Shown one piece after another: positions 19,892 to 28,605 of a stretch of DNA of 28,605 bases (positions within the stretch are counted from its first letter, which is position 1; every line of letters begins with the position of its first letter). The notes below the pieces were generated by a model. That model was not told where the DNA came from, did no database searches, and saw only the letters and a list, made by a program, of their open reading frames with translations. Where the stretch lies: positions 1-28,605 of IMG/VR virus record IMGVR_UViG_3300042197_002269. One strand, written 5' to 3'. Origin of the DNA: a virus. The translations under genes and the position numbers were made by a program.

Positions 19892-19931
19892 AAAAATGTT
19901 TTTAGGACATTCCTTTTTGTGATTTTACATA

Positions 19932-19940
19932 TATTTATAG
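19932..19940 (+). promoter_or_regulatory. Late-type box TATTTATAG at homing endonuclease start
   Basis: TATTTATAG begins 12 bases before the ATG at 19944. If it works as a -10 element, transcription would begin at or beside the start codon, giving a leaderless message. The leader of the GIY-YIG gene at 27376 has the same box at the same distance, although the two endonucleases are unrelated. Confidence 0.42.
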
Positions 19941-19943
19941 TAT

Positions 19944-20837
19944 ATGTGTAATTGTGAAGATACTAAAGGATTTAAAACCCCATGTTTTAGTTATTGTACT
20001 GAATGTAATAAAATTATTAATTATTCGCAAAGAAGTAACTACACTAATGGTAAAAAAAGAAATAAAAGATTTAGTGTTTGTTCATCTTGTTTAAAAAATG
20101 GGAACAAAAATCCATTTTATGGTAAAAAACATTCTAAAGAATCTATGTTAAAAATGGTTGAAACTTCTAAAAATAGTGAACTTAGAAAAAAATATTATGA
20201 AAAAATAAAATCAGAAGAATATCGTAAACTTTTAAGTGATTGGATGAAAAAAAATTCACCAATGAAAGGTAATTCCCAATATAAAATTTGGGTTAAAAAA
20301 TATGGAGTGGAAATAGCCGACAAAAAAAAGGAAGAATGGAGATTAAAAGTAGGAAGGAAAGGTGAAAAAAATTATTGGTTTGGTAAAACACCACCATTTG
20401 GTTCTGGAAATGGTTGGTCTGGATGGTACAAAGGATGGTATTTTAGAAGTATATTAGAGTTGTCATATATGATTAATGTGATTGAAAAACATCAAATTAA
20501 GTGGGAAAGCGGTGAAAAAAATCAATTTAAAATCGGGTACGAACATAAAGGTTTAAAAAAAAATTATTTTCCTGATTTTATATTAGAAGAAAAATATATG
20601 ATTGAATGTAAACCTAAAAAATTATGGAATACCGATTTAATCAAAATTAAAAAAAAATATGCAGAAGATTTTTGTAAAAAAAATAATTTAATTTATAAGT
20701 TGAGAGAAGTTCCTAAAATATCAGACCATGAAATTCAAAATTTAGTAAATAATGGGGAATTAATTTGGATAGATAAATATGATAAAAAATTTAGAGACAG
20801 ATTAAAAAAACTAACAAAAATTGTAGAACCTGGTTAA
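19944..20837 (+). CDS. Freestanding homing endonuclease, NUMOD3 plus PD-(D/E)XK-like nuclease
   Basis: This is a 297-residue probable homing endonuclease. Residues 1-50 hold paired cysteines ('CFSYCTEC' and 'CSSC'), likely a zinc ribbon. Residues 52-70 ('GNKNPFYGKKHSKESMLK') and about 141-150 ('EKNYWFGKTP') are NUMOD3-type DNA-binding repeats. The C-terminal domain has 'FRSILE' (Glu172), 'NYFPDF' (Asp211) and 'MIECK' (Glu221, Lys223) in the order and spacing of a PD-(D/E)XK nuclease; a Vsr-like relative is an alternative, but the E-x-K favours PD-(D/E)XK. The gene is much more AT- and Lys-rich than its neighbours, consistent with later arrival. It sits between uvsX and the exonuclease gene, both complete, so it is freestanding rather than intron-borne. 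It has its own late-type box. Expected role: cut alleles lacking it in co-infecting phages. Confidence 0.75.
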   Translation: MCNCEDTKGFKTPCFSYCTECNKIINYSQRSNYTNGKKRNKRFSVCSSCLKNGNKNPFYGKKHSKESMLKMVETSKNSELRKKYYEKIKSEEYRKLLSDWMKKNSPMKGNSQYKIWVKKYGVEIADKKKEEWRLKVGRKGEKNYWFGKTPPFGSGNGWSGWYKGWYFRSILELSYMINVIEKHQIKWESGEKNQFKIGYEHKGLKKNYFPDFILEEKYMIECKPKKLWNTDLIKIKKKYAEDFCKKNNLIYKLREVPKISDHEIQNLVNNGELIWIDKYDKKFRDRLKKLTKIVEPG

Positions 20838-22329: not shown

Positions 22330-24768
22330 ATGGCTGACAAGAATTTTGATTATTTAGGAAACACATTCCAACAACAACTTATCAATCAAATCATCGTTGA
22401 TAAGAACTTTTCACACTCAATTTTGGAGGTGATTGACACGGGGTATTTTGAAAACAAGTATTATAAAATCATTTTGCAAATGATTAAAGAATACTATAAA
22501 AAGTTTGATTGTGCCCCAACTTACGACACACTTCTTCAGATAGTAAAATCGGAAATTAGTCAGGAGTTAATGCTTAAAATAACTCTTGACACAATTTCTG
22601 AAATTAAAAATATATCAGACGAGGGAGCGTTATTCGTTCAAGAAAAAGCATTGAAGTTTTGTAAACAACAAGAACTTCAAAAGGTAATGTCAAAAGCTCA
22701 AAAGATTATTGATGCTGGTGAATTTGAAAACTACGACACCCTTGAAGAAATGGTGAGGGAAGCCCTCCAAGTTGGTGTTGTTGAAAAAGATACAGGTGAT
22801 GTATTTGAAAATCTGGAACAAGTACTTGAAGAAGATTATAGACACCCAATCCCGATGGGAATTCCAGGTATTGACAACCTTTTAAAAGGTGGTTTGGCGA
22901 AAGGTGAAATAGGTGTAATCCTCGCCCCGACAGGTGTTGGAAAAAGTTTAAGTGTGTCTGAACCTGTATTAACCCCATTTGGGTGGACAAAAATGGGCGA
23001 TTTAAAACTTGGAGATAAAGTTGTTGGCTCAGACGGAAAACCGCAATATGTAATTGGTGTTTATCCGCAAGGAGTGAGACCAATTTATAAAGTTGAATTT
23101 ACAGACAATACTTTTGTTAATTGTGATGAAGAACATCTTTGGAGTGTAAATACTTTAAACATGAGGACTGCAAAAACAAGAGTTAATGGTAAGGGTTTAT
23201 ATAAACCAAAATATGGATATAAAGTTGTTAAAACTTCAGATATGATGAAAGACATCAAAAAAAGAGGTAGATACAATTATAGATTACCGATAGTATCCCC
23301 AATTCATTTTGAAGAAAAAGAAGTTTTGATTGACCCTTATTTATTGGGACTTTTATTAGGGGACGGATACATTGGTAAAGGAAATAATAACCCAACAATA
23401 AGTACAAAGGATGATGAATTGTTTGAAAATATAAAACATCTAAATAATCACACTTCTTATACTGAATACACAAGGGAAAACACTAAAACAATTAAGTCTA
23501 TTAGGCTAAAATCTTCCGTAGGGAATGATTTGGAAAAAATAGGATTAAAAGGGTGTTTATCAAATAGTAAATTCATCCCAAAAGAATATTTGTACAATTC
23601 ACTTAATGTTAGATTGTCAATTTTTCAAGGATTAATGGATACTGATGGATATGTTAATAAAAAAGGAATGTGTCAATTTAGTACAGTTTCAAAACAACTA
23701 TCTGAAGACGTAAGAGAATTGGTGCTTTCACTTGGAGGTACGGTTAGGACAAATAAAAAATTACCAACATTTAAATCTAATGGAGAGAAAAAAATTGGAC
23801 AATTATGTTATAATCTTACAATTTCATTTGCGAACGATATAGTCCCATTTAGGCTTTTAAGAAAGGTCGGAAGATATTACAAAAGGACAAAGTATGTTGA
23901 GCAAAAATATGTAAAATCAATAGAATATTCTCATGATGAAGAAGCGGTTTGTATTAAAGTATCAAATCCTGACGAGTTATTTGTTACAAGAAACTATGTG
24001 TTAACTCACAATACATCCCTAACTACAAAAATCGCAAATTACGCATTTAATATGGGATTTAATGTTCTTCAAATATTCTTTGAGGACAACCCAAAGATTA
24101 TTCAAAGGAAACATTTTACACTATGGACTGGTATTGCTCCTGATTTACTTGGGGAACACAAAGAAGAAGTTATGAAAAAAGTTTCTGAAGTACAAGAAAA
24201 GATGAAAAATAAATTAATCTTAAAAAAACTTCCTTCAGATACTCTGACAATGACCCAAATTAAAAATCAAATTAGAAAGATGATTGCCGATGGAATTAAA
24301 ATTGATGTAATCATTCTTGATTATATTGATTGTGTGACTCCTGAAAAAATGATGGAAGATGAATGGAAGAGTGAAGGTTCAGTTATGAGAGCGTTTGAGT
24401 CAATGTGTCACGAATTAAACATTGCGGGATGGACGGCAACACAGGGTAATAGAAGTTCAATTTCATCTGAAGTTGTAACGACGGACCAAATGGGAGGGTC
24501 AATTAAAAAGGCTCAAGTCGGACACGTAATTATAACCGTAGCCAAAACACTTCAACAAAAAGAATTAAAACTCGCAACAATTGCAATTACAAAATCAAGA
24601 ATTGGAAAAGACGGAGTTGTTTTTGAAAATTGTAAATTTGATAATGAATTGTTAATTATTGATACTGAAAGCTCTATGACCTTCTTGGGATTTGAAGAAA
24701 ACAAGGAACAAAAAAATAGAGATAGAATTAGAGAGATTATGGATAAAAAGAAACAACAAGCAGTATAA
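22330..24768 (+). CDS. gp41: Replicative helicase gp41 (DnaB-like) containing an intein
   Basis: This is an 812-residue precursor of the phage replicative helicase, which unwinds the fork 5'-3' as a hexamer with primase. Removing the 356-residue intein (206-561) leaves 456 residues, close to T4 gp41 (475). The N-terminal helical domain spans about 1-150. The P-loop is split: 'APTGVGK' (199-205) before the intein and '[15 protein letters not shown]' (from 562) after it, which rejoin as GVGKTSLTTK. Walker B is 'VIILDYID' (Asp664), and 'TATQGNRS' with '[10 protein letters not shown]' match later DnaB motifs. Because the insertion interrupts the nucleotide-binding loop, the precursor should have no helicase activity until it splices. 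There is no frameshift, and the intein reads straight through. Confidence 0.9.
22945..24012 (+). other. Intein in gp41 P-loop with LAGLIDADG endonuclease
   Basis: This is an in-frame 356-residue intein, from Ser1 (AGT at 22945) to a C-terminal His-Asn (CAC AAT, ending 24012); the +1 extein residue is Thr. Block A reads '[16 protein letters not shown]', block B 'NCDEEHLW', and block F/G '[22 protein letters not shown]'. Two DOD motifs are intact: '[12 protein letters not shown]' (Asp345 of the precursor) and '[12 protein letters not shown]' (Asp439), so the endonuclease is probably active. It uses Ser at position 1 rather than the more common Cys, and Thr at +1. The insertion point lies between Lys and Thr of the Walker A motif, a site where DnaB-type inteins are known to insert. 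Confidence 0.92.
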
Positions 24769-24790: not shown

Positions 24791-25738
24791 ATGGAAAAAA
24801 TATTAGTAGAAAACCCCAACCGATTTGTTATATTCCCCATACAATACAACGATATATGGGAATATTATAAAATGCACCAAGCCGCATTTTGGACGGCGGA
24901 AGAAATTGATTTAAGTGGTGATATCAGAGATTGGGAAAATTTGTCTGAAAATGAGCAGTATTTTGTAAAAAACATTTTATCGTTTTTTGCGGCATCTGAC
25001 GGAATTGTAAATGAAAATTTGGCGGAAAACTTCTATAGGGAAGTTCAATATCCTGAAGCCAAGTTTTTCTATGGTTTCCAACTTATGATGGAGAATATTC
25101 ATAGTCTTATGTATTCACTTTTGATTAACACTTATGTTTCAAACCCAAAAGAAAAGGACGAATGTTTTAATGCAATTGATAGATTACCCGCCGTTCAGAA
25201 AAAAGCAAAATGGGCTCTTGAATGGATAACAAAAGCGTCTTTCCAAGAAAGATTAATTGCGTTTGCTGCAGTCGAAGGCATATTCTTTTCCGGTTCATTC
25301 TGTTCCATTTTTTGGTTAAAATCAAGAGGTATTATGCAAGGACTTTGTAATGCAAACGCTCTTATTTTTAAAGATGAAAACCTACATTGTGATTTTGCAA
25401 TTCATTTGTTGAATAATCACGTTGAAAACAAACCAAGTGAAAAAAGGATTAAAGAAATTTTATTGTCCGCACTTGAAATTGAAAAAGAATTTATTACCGA
25501 ATCATTGCCAGTATCACTTATTGGAATGAATTCAAATCTTATGAAACAATATCTTGAATTTGTGGTTGATGGATTACTTGTTAAAATGGGTTGCAAAAAA
25601 CATTTTAATGTGGAACAACCATTTAAATTTATGGAACAAATTGCGGTTGAAACAAAAGGCAATTTCTTTGAATCACGAACCGTAGAATATCAAAAGGCAA
25701 AACTTAATGAAACTTTGACCTTTACAGAAGACTTTTAA
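24791..25738 (+). CDS. nrdB: Ribonucleotide reductase small subunit NrdB
   Basis: This 315-residue class I R2 subunit holds the di-metal site and tyrosyl radical that start ribonucleotide reduction. Ligands are visible in order: Asp40 ('FWTAEEID'), Glu101 and His104 ('MENIHSLMY'), radical Tyr108 four residues after that His, Glu162 ('AAVEGIFF'), Glu196 and His199 ('DENLHCD'). The '[10 protein letters not shown]' form resembles eukaryotic-type R2. The C-terminus 'TLTFTEDF' resembles the R1-docking tail. I chose ATG 24791; an in-frame ATG at 24692 would overlap the end of gp41 by 77 bases and add 33 residues that do not look like R2. nrdB precedes nrdA, the reverse of T4. Confidence 0.92.
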
Positions 25739-25756: not shown

Positions 25757-27343
25757 ATGATGTCACTAAAAATTAGAAAGCGTGGTGGGGAAGACGCATC
25801 TTTTAACCCACAGAAAATTTATAATAGAATTAAAAGAGCTGCAAAGGGAATGAGCGTTAATTCTGATGAAATTTTTATTAAAGTAATAACTTCCGTTCCG
25901 ACTGAAGGGGAGATTACAACAAAAGAATTGGATAAGTTAATTTATGAAATCGCTGCGGCGTATACAGGTAGTCACCACGATTATTCTAGATTGGCATCGT
26001 CTGTTGCAATATCTTCATATCATAAGGAGACCGACCCAAGCTTTTCAAACACTATGACCGAGCTCCATAAAGCATGTATAGTTAATAGAGAGTTCATGGA
26101 GACAATTGAATTGTATGGACCACAAAATGTTGATAAAGTAATTAATCACGATAATGATTATAACTTTGATTATTTTGCTTGGCGTTCTTTACAAGAAATG
26201 TATCTTTTAAAACTACCAAGTGGTAAAACAATTGAAAGACCCCAACATATGTATATGCGTGTTGCAATATGGGTTACAAAATCATTTGAAGAGGCTGTTG
26301 AGTATTATAATTCTTTGTCAAATCAACTTATTTCACCGGCAACCCCAATTATGATTAATTCGGGAACAAAAACTCCGCAACTTGCTTCTTGTGTATTACA
26401 TTATAACGATGCCGACTCAAGAGAAGGGTTATTAAATACAATGAGGGATATTTCAACATATTCATCTGATGCCGCTGGTATTGGATTATCTATGTCAAAT
26501 ATTCGTAGTAAGGAAAGTAGAATTACATCTTCAGGTGGATACGCTGGTGGACTTTTAAAATATTTAAAAATTGTTAATGAGTCGTTAAGATTTTTTAATC
26601 AACAAGGCCGTCGTCCTGGCTCTGCTGCAATTTATTTGGAACCTTGGCATAAAGATATTTTTGACCTACTTGATATTAAAAAGAATACAGGGGCTGAAGA
26701 ATTAAGGGCAAGAGATTTATTCACGGCTCTTTGGATACCTGATAATTTTATGAGAGCAGTAAAAAGTAATGACGATTGGTATTTGTTTTGTCCTAACGAT
26801 ATTAAAAAGGCGGGAATTAAACCACTACAAGAATGTTATGGTGACGAGTATGAATTAAACTATAATAAAGCTGTATCACTTGGAATTGGTAAAAAAGTAA
26901 AAGCTCAAGAAGTATGGACAAAAGTAATTGAATCACAAGTTGAAACAGGTGTTCCATACCTGTCTTCAAAAGACAATGCAAACAAAAAAACCAATCATCA
27001 AAATTTAGGGACAATAAAACAAAGCAATTTGTGTTGTTTGGTCGGAGATACTTTATTAACTATTAAAAGAGAAAATGGTAATGTGGAAAATATAGCAATA
27101 TCCCAAGTTATTGAATTAATTAATACATCTGAAAGATTGATGGTATTAACTGAAGGTAATAAATTTTCTTTAATTAGTGCAGGTATGTTAACTAAAAAAA
27201 ATTCAGAAATAATTGAAATTTCTGACGTTGAAACCGGCTTTAGTGTAAAGTGTACTCCCGACCATTTAATATTTACTAAAAATAGAGGATTTGTTAGGGC
27301 TGACGAATTAAAAGAAAATGATGAATTAGATTTGAACATATAG
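25757..27343 (+). CDS. nrdA: NrdA N-terminal part fused to N-half of a split intein
   Basis: This 528-residue ORF encodes the first 426 residues of the class I ribonucleotide reductase large subunit followed by 102 residues of intein. The N-terminus looks like an ATP-cone region ('LKIRKRGGEDASFNPQKIYNRI'). Conserved R1 pieces follow: 'TPIMINSGT', 'LASCVL' (Cys212, the first redox cysteine), 'GIGLSMSNIR', 'NQQGRRPGSAAIYLEPWH'. It runs to 'IKQSNLC', where Asn424 and Cys426 match E. coli Asn437 and thiyl-radical Cys439. The intein begins with the very next codon, so the catalytic Glu (E. coli 441), second redox Cys and C-terminal tail are missing here and must lie beyond the window. It is a fractured gene, not a decayed one. 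Start chosen at ATG 25757 (25760 is equally possible), 18 bases after nrdB. Confidence 0.92.
   Translation: MMSLKIRKRGGEDASFNPQKIYNRIKRAAKGMSVNSDEIFIKVITSVPTEGEITTKELDKLIYEIAAAYTGSHHDYSRLASSVAISSYHKETDPSFSNTMTELHKACIVNREFMETIELYGPQNVDKVINHDNDYNFDYFAWRSLQEMYLLKLPSGKTIERPQHMYMRVAIWVTKSFEEAVEYYNSLSNQLISPATPIMINSGTKTPQLASCVLHYNDADSREGLLNTMRDISTYSSDAAGIGLSMSNIRSKESRITSSGGYAGGLLKYLKIVNESLRFFNQQGRRPGSAAIYLEPWHKDIFDLLDIKKNTGAEELRARDLFTALWIPDNFMRAVKSNDDWYLFCPNDIKKAGIKPLQECYGDEYELNYNKAVSLGIGKKVKAQEVWTKVIESQVETGVPYLSSKDNANKKTNHQNLGTIKQSNLCCLVGDTLLTIKRENGNVENIAISQVIELINTSERLMVLTEGNKFSLISAGMLTKKNSEIIEISDVETGFSVKCTPDHLIFTKNRGFVRADELKENDELDLNI
27035..27340 (+). other. N-terminal split intein (IntN) of NrdA
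   Basis: The 102 residues begin with Cys1 ('CLVGDTLLTI', block A) directly after the NrdA catalytic Cys. Block B is 'VKCTPDHLIFT', with the expected T-x-x-H. The ORF ends after 'NRGFVRADELKENDELDLNI', at the place where natural split inteins such as NrdJ-1 and NrdA-2 end; the 'CTPDH.. (Y/F)T.NRG(Y/F)V.A.(E/D)L' run is very like theirs. It is predicted to associate with the C-half starting at 28530. Confidence 0.93.
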
Positions 27344-27363
27344 TAGTATTTTATTTATTTGTA

Positions 27364-27374
27364 TATTTATATAG
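27364..27374 (+). promoter_or_regulatory. Late-type box TATTTATATAG at GIY-YIG gene start
   Basis: TATTTATATAG begins 12 bases before the ATG at 27376 and ends one base before it, identical to the box upstream of the tape measure gene and spaced as for the homing endonuclease at 19944. It could start a leaderless transcript that also covers the C-terminal nrdA ORF. Confidence 0.45.
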
Positions 27375-27375
27375 T

Positions 27376-28524
27376 ATGAGGTATTATGTTTATATATTAT
27401 TAGATGACACTAAAAAAGGTAATTACAATAATGAGTTTTGCGATGTTGAATTTAAACCATTCTATGTTGGTAAAGGGGATTTTTTATCTAAAAATAAAAA
27501 AGAAAGACATTTGACTCATTATAAAGAAATGAAAAGAAAATTAACAAAAATACCAAATCTTCATAAATATAATACTATAAAAAAATTGCAAGAAAATGGA
27601 TTTAAACCAAATTTTATAATTGTTTGTAAAGATGATGATGAAAAAAAAATTTTAGATATTGAAAGTAAATTAATTAAATTTTATGGTAAAGTAAAAGATG
27701 GTGGTTTATTAACTAATATTTCTGATGGTGGGGTTGGAGGTAATTTATTTTCACATGTTGAAGGGTTAAGAGAAAAATTAAACGAATTAGGGTCTAAAAG
27801 ATGGGGAGGAGAAAACAATCCTAATTATAATAAGCCTAAAGAAGAAACATATAGTTTTAAATATAAAAAAGAACACGGGCATCATTGGAATACTGGTAGA
27901 AAAATAACTGAAGAACAAAAAATAAAAACAAAAAAAACAAAATATGAAAAATTACCTAATGTTGAAATGATATGTCCTAACACTTATGAGATTATTGATG
28001 TTGGTAAAACTGTTGATATGATAAAAAAATATCAGTTAAAACCTTATTTACTATATAGATGTTTAAATCAAGGAGGAAGACACAAAAATTTTTTTTGGAA
28101 ATATCAAAAAAAAGATTTAGTATTAAGTAAATCTAAAGTAGAAGGATATGTTAAACCAAAAATTAAACATAATAATAAAAAAATTTATTTTAAAAAAAAC
28201 ATAAACGACATTAAAGAAGTTGTTTTTAGTGACATTTATGAGGCGTCGCAAAAAACAGGATTTTGTGAAGAGGTTATTAGAAGAAAATGTAGAACTAACA
28301 ACAGCAATGAAAAAATATTTAGGTATGAAAATGGAGAATATAACTTTAATGTTAAAAATGGTAAAAAAATTAAAGTCATAAGTATAGATGAAAACGGGAA
28401 TGAAAAAGTATATGAGTCCGCAACTGACGCCGCAAAGGATATAAATGGTAACGTGTCGTTAATAATTGCAATTTGTAAAGGAAAAAGAAAAAAACATAAA
28501 AAATTAACATTTAAATATTTTTAA
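27376..28524 (+). CDS. GIY-YIG homing endonuclease inside the fractured nrdA gene
   Basis: This is a 382-residue homing endonuclease gene lying between the two halves of nrdA. The catalytic domain (about 1-115) shows the GIY equivalent 'YYVYILLD', the YIG equivalent 'FYVGKG', the Arg/His/Tyr cluster 'ERHLTHY', the metal-binding Glu in 'DIESKLIKFYG' and 'LLTNISDGGVGG' at the end of the fold. DNA-binding modules follow: a NUMOD3-like segment ('NPNYNKP' and 'GRKITEEQKIKTKKTK'), then three NUMOD1-like helix-turn-helix segments, the last being 'VISIDENGNEKVYESATDAAKDI'. It is extremely Lys/Asn-rich and AT-rich, unlike the NrdA sequence around it. It starts 32 bases after the IntN stop and ends 5 bases before the IntC start, so it occupies the whole gap. 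It would be expected to cut intact nrdA near the insertion site. Confidence 0.9.
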   Translation: MRYYVYILLDDTKKGNYNNEFCDVEFKPFYVGKGDFLSKNKKERHLTHYKEMKRKLTKIPNLHKYNTIKKLQENGFKPNFIIVCKDDDEKKILDIESKLIKFYGKVKDGGLLTNISDGGVGGNLFSHVEGLREKLNELGSKRWGGENNPNYNKPKEETYSFKYKKEHGHHWNTGRKITEEQKIKTKKTKYEKLPNVEMICPNTYEIIDVGKTVDMIKKYQLKPYLLYRCLNQGGRHKNFFWKYQKKDLVLSKSKVEGYVKPKIKHNNKKIYFKKNINDIKEVVFSDIYEASQKTGFCEEVIRRKCRTNNSNEKIFRYENGEYNFNVKNGKKIKVISIDENGNEKVYESATDAAKDINGNVSLIIAICKGKRKKHKKLTFKYF

Positions 28525-28529
28525 AAAAT

Positions 28530-28605
28530 ATGATAAAAATAAAAAAAATAGAAGAAAAACAAGATGTATTTGACATACAAGTGCCTGAAACATCATGCTT
28601 CTACG
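28530..28605 (+). CDS. nrdA: C-terminal split intein (IntC), start of NrdA C-terminal ORF (3' cut by window)
   Basis: A new ORF opens at ATG 28530 and runs off the window after 25 full codons. It begins with a short basic lead ('MIKIKKIEEKQ') and then 'DVFDIQVPETSCFY', the block F pattern of C-terminal inteins (D-V-x-D-I-x-V...N-F-x-A-N-x-I-x-V-H-N). The lead and block resemble the C-halves of NrdA-2 and NrdJ-1. The expected continuation is about ten more intein residues ending in His-Asn, then the NrdA C-extein starting with a nucleophilic residue and the catalytic Glu. Only part is visible, so identity is strong from context but the splice junction is unseen. Confidence 0.85.
   Translation, partial: MIKIKKIEEKQDVFDIQVPETSCFY

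What the first reader, a model, noticed from the sequence alone, without database searches (positions are those of the whole stretch)
25757..28605. nrdA is a fractured gene: split intein halves with a GIY-YIG homing endonuclease gene in the break
Seen: NrdA runs to its SNLC motif, continues into a 102-residue N-intein with a normal stop, is followed by a complete 382-residue GIY-YIG gene, and five bases later a new ORF opens with C-intein block F. Known: fractured genes with split inteins and intervening endonuclease genes were described from marine metagenomes (Dassa and colleagues, 2009), including nrdA and nrdJ cases. Inferred: NrdA is made by trans-splicing and the GIY-YIG gene is the mobility module of this insertion. 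The exact trio, tied to this phage genome and endonuclease family, may be undescribed.
Basis: partly seen in the sequence, partly recalled or inferred. Interest (0 to 1): 0.92.

Follow-up and report, generated by a model that had tools for sequence, protein, structure and literature searches.

The report
Mobile split intein breaking phage nrdA
A phage gene for making DNA building blocks has been cut in two by a jumping element that carries its own DNA-cutting enzyme and two protein 'glue' halves predicted to rejoin the broken enzyme; the arrangement was known, but relatives, including a cultured Klebsiella phage, show it moving between phages.

Summary
NrdA runs to QSNLC (27034), then a 102-residue class-1 N-intein (27035-27340), a 382-codon GIY-YIG/NUMOD endonuclease gene (27376-28524), and an ORF at 28530 opening with C-intein block F, cut by the record end at 28605. 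The His-Asn end and C-extein lie outside the record, but at least seven independent viral contigs carry the same trio complete (LVHN|CEI), always in nrdA at this codon. Trans-splicing of NrdA, with the GIY-YIG gene as mobility module, is well supported, though untested by experiment. The unit is horizontally mobile: the window's N-extein is 91% identical to intein-less alleles but at most 82% to any carrier; insert synonymous divergence is lower than the host gene's; the +1 residue is Cys in 13/13 carriers and Asn/Ser/Ile in 79/79 close empty alleles, so the element seems to bring its own splice nucleophile. Cultured Klebsiella phage KP13-7 carries the same arrangement at the same codon, unannotated, beside siblings with the empty site and clear coconversion. 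Fractured genes with split inteins (Dassa 2009), one with a GIY-YIG gene (AceL NrdHF), are known. This is a new member of a known kind, with an unusually good natural record of homing and decay.

The parts
24791..25738 (+). nrdB, class I ribonucleotide reductase small subunit, intact, directly upstream
   Evidence: PF00268 E 1.7e-106
25757..27034 (+). NrdA N-extein (ATP-cone, all-alpha domain, start of the barrel) ending in QSNLC, the conserved RNR active-site Cys motif
   Evidence: PF03477, PF00317, PF02867; 84-91% identical to intein-less phage NrdA where SNLC-N-EIYQ is contiguous
27035..27340 (+). IntN, 102 residues, class 1 (C1; block B CTPDH); stop 27341-27343
   Evidence: PF14890 4e-6, TIGR01445 3e-4; NrdJ-1 split intein E 1e-21; foldseek best hit NrdJ-1, then other inteins; dN/dS 0.17-0.32
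27361..27371 (+). GTATATTTATA, promoter-like element 4 bases before the endonuclease start, conserved in most carriers
   Evidence: spacer listing; ATATTTATA-type words are strand-specifically concentrated upstream of ORFs in this phage group
27376..28524 (+). Free-standing GIY-YIG homing endonuclease gene, 382 aa (catalytic domain about residues 1-120; NUMOD-like DNA-binding repeat 336-380)
   Evidence: dN/dS 0.24-0.37
28530..28605 (+). Start of the IntC-NrdA C-extein gene: C-intein block F; cut by the record end before HN|C
   Evidence: complete in relatives, e.g. MIKIKK..DVYDIQVPETSCFYANNILVHN|CEIYQ

Best explanation
The nrdA gene is fractured by a mobile unit of about 1.6 kb made of three parts: IntN, a GIY-YIG homing-endonuclease gene, and IntC. 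Shown by sequence: two NrdA half-genes carry the two halves of a class-1 split intein, the endonuclease gene sits between them, and the unit is present or absent at one codon of nrdA in related phages. Inferred: (1) the two half-proteins associate through IntN and IntC and trans-splice, restoring NrdA with SNLC-C-EI at its active site; (2) the endonuclease, probably transcribed from its own ATATTTATA-type promoter, cuts intein-less nrdA near SNLCxEI during co-infection, and repair from the carrier copies the whole unit plus flanking bases; (3) this coconversion also installs the +1 Cys codon, which empty alleles lack, so the element makes its landing site competent for splicing. The endonuclease is later lost repeatedly (deletion, remnant, no gene, in one lineage apparently a re-fused cis mini-intein), while the splicing halves, needed for a working NrdA, are kept.
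For: Same trio, same codon, complete in L003, L010, L013, L016, L017, L118, L121 and L129. 80 of the 80 nearest NrdA loci are empty. The window's N-extein lies inside a starred clade with 11 empties (99/92), 90.6% identical to the nearest empty versus at most 82.3% to any carrier, while its intein groups with L003/L005/L006/L010/L121 (98/97). dS window vs L010/L003: endonuclease 0.69/0.82, IntN 0.83/0.70, NrdA 1.92/1.69. +1 residue Cys in 13/13 carriers; Asn 74, Ser 3, Ile 2 in empties. Cultured phage KP13-7 has the same arrangement at the same codon; siblings RaK2, K64-1, Muenster and phiKp_21 read SNLC-Q-EI. Flanks are nearly identical upstream to 6 bases from the junction, then 60 mismatches in 552 bases downstream versus 6 in 426 upstream (p 6e-10). 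phiKp_21, which carries only the second insertion, is RaK2-like next to the empty site, which ties that tract to this insertion. Decay series: L006-L009, L018, L005, L012, L019, L029.
Against: No splicing or cleavage data. The window stops before HN|C. The window endonuclease alone misses the Pfam GIY-YIG models and the family's AF2 model is modest (pLDDT 65.5). The flank signal in the window itself is weak: of 15 private amino-acid differences from the empties, 3 fall in the last 30 of 424 codons. dS is near saturation for nrdA, so the ratios are rough.
Confidence: 0.88

Rival explanations
1. NrdA works as two unspliced polypeptides, as after the mobE insertion in Aeromonas phage Aeh1 nrdA, and the intein halves are relics.
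For: A ribonucleotide reductase broken by an endonuclease gene that keeps function as two peptides is documented (PMC10448857). In L027/L029 a further nrdA break has no recognisable splice residues.
Against: All splice residues are conserved across carriers and IntN is under purifying selection (dN/dS 0.17-0.32). Without splicing the break falls directly at the active-site Cys with 102 and 33 extra residues attached. The +1 Cys is in every carrier and no close empty.
Confidence: 0.06
2. The insertion is ancient and inherited vertically; the endonuclease is an immobile passenger and intein-less phages lost it.
For: Many carriers fall outside the large empty clade in the NrdA tree, and the tree needs only 4 changes of state.
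Against: The window nests among 11 empties with strong support; insert dS is below host-gene dS; KP13-7 has it while siblings with about 98% identical flanks lack it, with coconversion.
Confidence: 0.05
3. Assembly or sequencing artefact: a chimeric contig joining an nrdA fragment to an unrelated endonuclease gene.
For: The record is a short metagenomic fragment that ends inside the feature.
Against: Identical organisation in many independent contigs, and the same arrangement in a complete cultured phage genome.
Confidence: 0.01

Closest known systems
Fractured genes with split inteins (Dassa et al. 2009, NAR 37:2560; paper not held)
   Same: Conserved DNA-metabolism enzyme broken by a split intein with a free-standing endonuclease gene between the halves; nrdA among the hosts (7 nrdA subunits interrupted by inteins in Global Ocean Sampling data per PMC3653736)
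   Different: The endonuclease here is GIY-YIG, not the new (Vsr-related) family announced in that paper's title; which endonucleases its nrdA cases carried could not be checked
AceL NrdHF split class 3 intein locus (PMC7891396)
   Different: Small-subunit gene nrdHF and a class 3 intein; here nrdA and a class 1 intein with Cys1
NrdJ-1 split intein
   Same: Closest solved intein to IntN (E 1e-21; best foldseek hit)
   Different: From nrdJ, another RNR class
Aeromonas phage Aeh1 nrdA with mobE (PMC10448857, PMC2988022)
   Same: Homing-endonuclease gene breaks phage nrdA
   Different: No intein splicing is invoked; the halves work as two peptides; mobE is HNH-type
I-TevI and I-TevII of phage T4 (PMC2988022)
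   Same: GIY-YIG nuclease with modular DNA-binding part, own promoter inside the host gene, homing with asymmetric flank coconversion
   Different: They sit in group I introns, not in a split intein

Membership tests
Fractured gene (split-intein type) | Conserved enzyme gene broken into two ORFs at a conserved motif | tested here: met
   NrdA broken at SNLC|xEI; both halves complete in relatives
Fractured gene (split-intein type) | IntN at the end of the first ORF, IntC at the start of the second | tested here: met
   in the window IntC is cut before HN, complete in relatives
Fractured gene (split-intein type) | Free-standing endonuclease gene between the halves | tested here: met
   27376-28524, own start and stop
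Fractured gene (split-intein type) | Trans-splicing to the intact enzyme | not testable with these tools
   Needs expression of both halves
Class 1 intein | Nucleophile at position 1, block B TxxH, C-terminal HN, Cys/Ser/Thr at +1 | tested here: met
   C1 and T74-H77 invariant in 12 sequences; HN|C in all complete carriers. For the window itself HN and +1 lie beyond the record
Class 1 intein | HINT fold | tested here: met
   IntN model (pLDDT 79): best matches are inteins, NrdJ-1, TFIIB mini-intein, Npu DnaE; TM scores are low (0.34-0.37), the model being half of a domain
GIY-YIG homing endonuclease | GIY-YIG domain with catalytic Arg, Glu, Asn | tested here: met
   YVY..FYVG motif, R44, E96, N114 invariant; LEM-3_GIY-YIG in 4 of 6 members, best 2.7e-6, the window member itself has no hit; foldseek 9u75 prob 1.00, E 0.019
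GIY-YIG homing endonuclease | Separate DNA-binding module | tested here: met
   I-HmuI NUMOD-like domain in 6 of 6; structure match 1u3e E 5e-4
GIY-YIG homing endonuclease | Cuts the empty allele and promotes its own insertion | tested here: inconclusive
   Comparative footprint of homing; no cleavage assay possible
Vsr-like endonuclease of fractured genes | PD-(D/E)XK/Vsr-like nuclease in the break | tested here: not met
   The window endonuclease has no such match

The most novel reading that the evidence does not exclude
The unit does not need a splice-competent landing site. It homes into SNLCxEI where x is Asn, Gln, Ser or Ile, and coconversion replaces x with the Cys that splicing needs, leaving a Cys scar beside the RNR active-site Cys after splicing. 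A related intein group one codon earlier (SNL|CxE) instead uses the invariant Cys as nucleophile. Contiguous SNLC-C-EI alleles (L198-L204) with carrier-like flanks would be footprints of precise loss.
Probability: 0.5. Interest if true: 0.68.

Novelty: new member of a known kind. Interest (0 to 1): 0.52.

Why it matters
Fractured genes have been discussed as a step in how split inteins and gene breaks arise, but their mobility was inferred from anatomy. The relatives collected here give occupied and empty alleles, discordant trees, coconverted flanks and a decay series (full endonuclease, in-frame deletion, remnant, none, apparently re-fused cis intein) at a single codon. The unannotated copy in cultured phage KP13-7, next to siblings with the empty site, makes homing of a split intein directly testable. 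The families also add natural split inteins of the NrdJ-1 type, and some relatives need two split inteins working side by side in one protein.

Tried and rejected
A single-sequence viral scan with the endonuclease found nothing; the alignment-based scan did. Relatives cannot be drawn for a virus record. An I-TevI-like operator (spacer resembling the homing site) was tested and not supported: best 12-14 of 20 matches, reached by 5-69% of shuffles. No Rfam match in the window or across the KP13-7 nrdA region, so no group I intron was recognised in either. The scan of cellular genomes gave only four weak, partial intein matches, so no cellular carrier is known. Dassa 2009 is not in the held library, so its endonuclease assignments could not be compared. 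The raised divergence between the two KP13-7 split inteins was at first ambiguous as to which insertion brought it; phiKp_21 resolved it. Considered and dropped: programmed frameshift or readthrough, since there is a stop after IntN and a complete gene separates the halves.

Full report
What is there. The window is the whole of a 28,605-base viral record. At its right end lie nrdB and then nrdA. NrdA is read to QSNLC at 27034 and then continues into a 102-residue N-intein that begins at the second Cys of the CC pair (CLVGDT) and ends with a stop at 27341-27343. A 382-codon gene follows (27376-28524), and five bases after its stop an ATG opens MIKIKKIEEKQDVFDIQVPETSCFY, which is C-intein block F, cut by the record end. 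There is no second nrdA in the record, but the record is a fragment.

Completion from relatives. A viral scan with IntN gave 36 loci. The same trio is complete, with LVHN followed by CEI and the rest of NrdA, in L003, L010/L011, L013 and L015, L016 and L017. Further copies found through the endonuclease family are L118/L119, L121 and L129, the last in a 339 kb contig with only 41% identical NrdA. Every strong hit of this long GIY-YIG family lies in nrdA at this codon; the next hits are at most 40% identical over only part of the protein and, bar weak matches in L175, show no intein nearby. The endonuclease and the split intein therefore travel together.

What the parts are. IntN matches Pfam and TIGR intein models. 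Its nearest solved structure is the NrdJ-1 split intein (E 1e-21), and its AF2 model finds NrdJ-1, TFIIB, Npu DnaE and other inteins. C1 and block B TxxH are invariant. The endonuclease has a degenerate GIY-YIG motif (YVY..FYVG), invariant R44, E96 and N114, LEM-3_GIY-YIG matches in 4 of 6 members and a NUMOD-like C-terminus in 6 of 6. Its AF2 model (pLDDT 65.5) matches I-HmuI's NUMOD region and a GIY-YIG nuclease. Arg, Glu and Asn are the catalytic residues of I-TevI (PMC2988022). Both parts look to be under purifying selection: dN/dS 0.24-0.37 for the endonuclease and 0.17-0.32 for IntN in the divergent pairs.

Mobility. The 80 nearest NrdA N-exteins are all intein-less, reading SNLC-N/S/I-EI without a break. 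The window is 90.6% identical to the best of them and at most 82.3% to any carrier. In the NrdA tree it sits in a starred set of 12 with 11 empties, while in the intein tree it sits with L003, L005, L006, L010 and L121. Synonymous divergence from L010 and L003 is about 0.7-0.8 in the insert but 1.7-1.9 in nrdA (rough, because near saturation). The last codons of the window N-extein (NLGTIKQSNLC) resemble L010, whereas all 80 empties have GVIKQ; with 3 of 15 private residues in the last 30 of 424 codons this is suggestive only.

A cultured case. Klebsiella phage KP13-7 (OP617745.1) has nrdA in pieces, largely annotated as hypothetical proteins. At the same codon it carries IntN, a 237-aa GIY-YIG gene (PF01541) and IntC; further downstream there is a second split intein with another gene in the break, and upstream an interruption with an HNH gene. 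RaK2, K64-1, Muenster and phiKp_21 lack the first split intein and read SNLC-Q-EI. KP13-7 differs from RaK2 by 6 mismatches in 426 bases upstream but 60 in 552 downstream (p 6e-10). phiKp_21, which has only the second split intein, matches RaK2 over the first ~300 bases next to the empty site and KP13-7 over about the last 100-150 before the second insertion. Two homing events, each with its own flank tract, explain this mosaic. The KP13-7 trio is an analogue of the window trio (IntN 39% identical; endonucleases similar over about 100 residues), not a close copy.

The +1 residue. All 13 carriers with a readable junction have Cys at +1; 79 readable close empties have Asn (74), Ser (3) or Ile (2), and the KP13-7 siblings have Gln. 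Asn, Gln and Ile cannot serve as the splice nucleophile (established knowledge of class 1 inteins). The simplest reading is that the Cys codon comes with the insertion by coconversion. A second intein group (L022-L026, L032-L037, except the HNH case L036, which shares the site) is inserted one codon earlier, SNL|CxE, and uses the invariant Cys. Seven contigs (L198-L204, one group) have contiguous SNLC-C-EIYQ with carrier-like flanking residues; they may be alleles that lost the insertion precisely, which is not shown.

Decay. L006-L009 keep a 120-codon endonuclease gene with an in-frame deletion that removes the stretch holding E96 and N114; L018 has only a remnant; L005 and L012 have none; L019/L020 have none, with IntN stop and IntC start overlapping in ATGA; L028-L031 have one continuous mini-intein at the same site, grouped with split ones. 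Re-fusion of a split intein is the parsimonious reading, but branching inside that clade is unresolved.

Expression. GTATATTTATA lies 4 bases before the window endonuclease gene and in most carriers. Among 56 words of the same letters, the two overlapping words ATATTTAT and TATTTATA rank first and second for lying upstream of ORFs in this phage group (50% and 40% of occurrences, median 6.5%), and the reverse complement does not (53 versus 1; the loci are related, so counts are not independent). A promoter for the endonuclease gene is the likely meaning, as for the T4 intron endonucleases (PMC2988022).

Known or new. Split inteins in fractured genes with an endonuclease gene between are known (Dassa 2009, not held; 7 nrdA cases according to PMC3653736). 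A GIY-YIG gene in a fractured RNR gene is known from AceL nrdHF (PMC7891396). So the find is a new member of a known kind. What the follow-up adds is comparative evidence of mobility, the own-nucleophile pattern at +1, the decay series, doubly fractured nrdA in relatives (L005, L013), and a cultured phage in which to test it. I found no held paper that notes the inteins of KP13-7, but most subscription papers are not held.

Noticed in passing
L005 5364-8595; L013 6511-9720; L012 5345-7042; L010 6515-7756: Second intein site in the same NrdA (MPVA|C..HN|SSAKI): split with a ~494-aa endonuclease-like gene in L005 and L013 (nrdA in three genes, two split inteins), continuous cis mini-intein in L012, empty in L010.
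   Followed up: partly
L197 (OP617745.1 27846-38151): Cultured Klebsiella jumbo phage KP13-7 has nrdA interrupted three times (HNH gene; split intein + GIY-YIG; split intein + another gene), largely annotated as hypothetical proteins.
   Followed up: yes
window 22330-24768: DnaB-like helicase with an in-frame LAGLIDADG intein after GVGKS; the L010 homologue (459 aa) has no intein.
   Followed up: no
window 19944-20837: Free-standing NUMOD3/PD-(D/E)XK-like endonuclease gene between a UvsX/RecA-like gene and a 5'-3' exonuclease gene, with its own ATATATTTATA element at 19929-19939.
   Followed up: no
window 1304, 16797, 19932, 27364 and loci L038-L117: Strand-specific ATATTTATA words just upstream of ORFs, a probable promoter element of this phage group.
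   Followed up: partly
L198-L204: Contiguous SNLC-C-EIYQ without intein, with GTIKQ and EIYQFTDE flanks like carriers: possible footprints of precise intein loss.
   Followed up: partly
L027 6306-7435; L029 5430-7713: A further NrdA break: the first half ends in a block-B-like tail (..HKVLL..DDDI..*), the second half starts MKI(V/I)KKEC without recognisable splice residues; a gene lies between, antisense in L029.
   Followed up: no
L006-L009: In-frame deletion derivative of the GIY-YIG gene (120 codons, lacks the stretch with E96 and N114) in four contigs; the deletion ends share an IIY(E/D)S repeat.
   Followed up: partly
L028-L031 versus L019-L021: Continuous mini-intein grouped among split inteins; L019 has IntN stop and IntC start overlapping in ATGA, close to a fusion.
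   Followed up: partly
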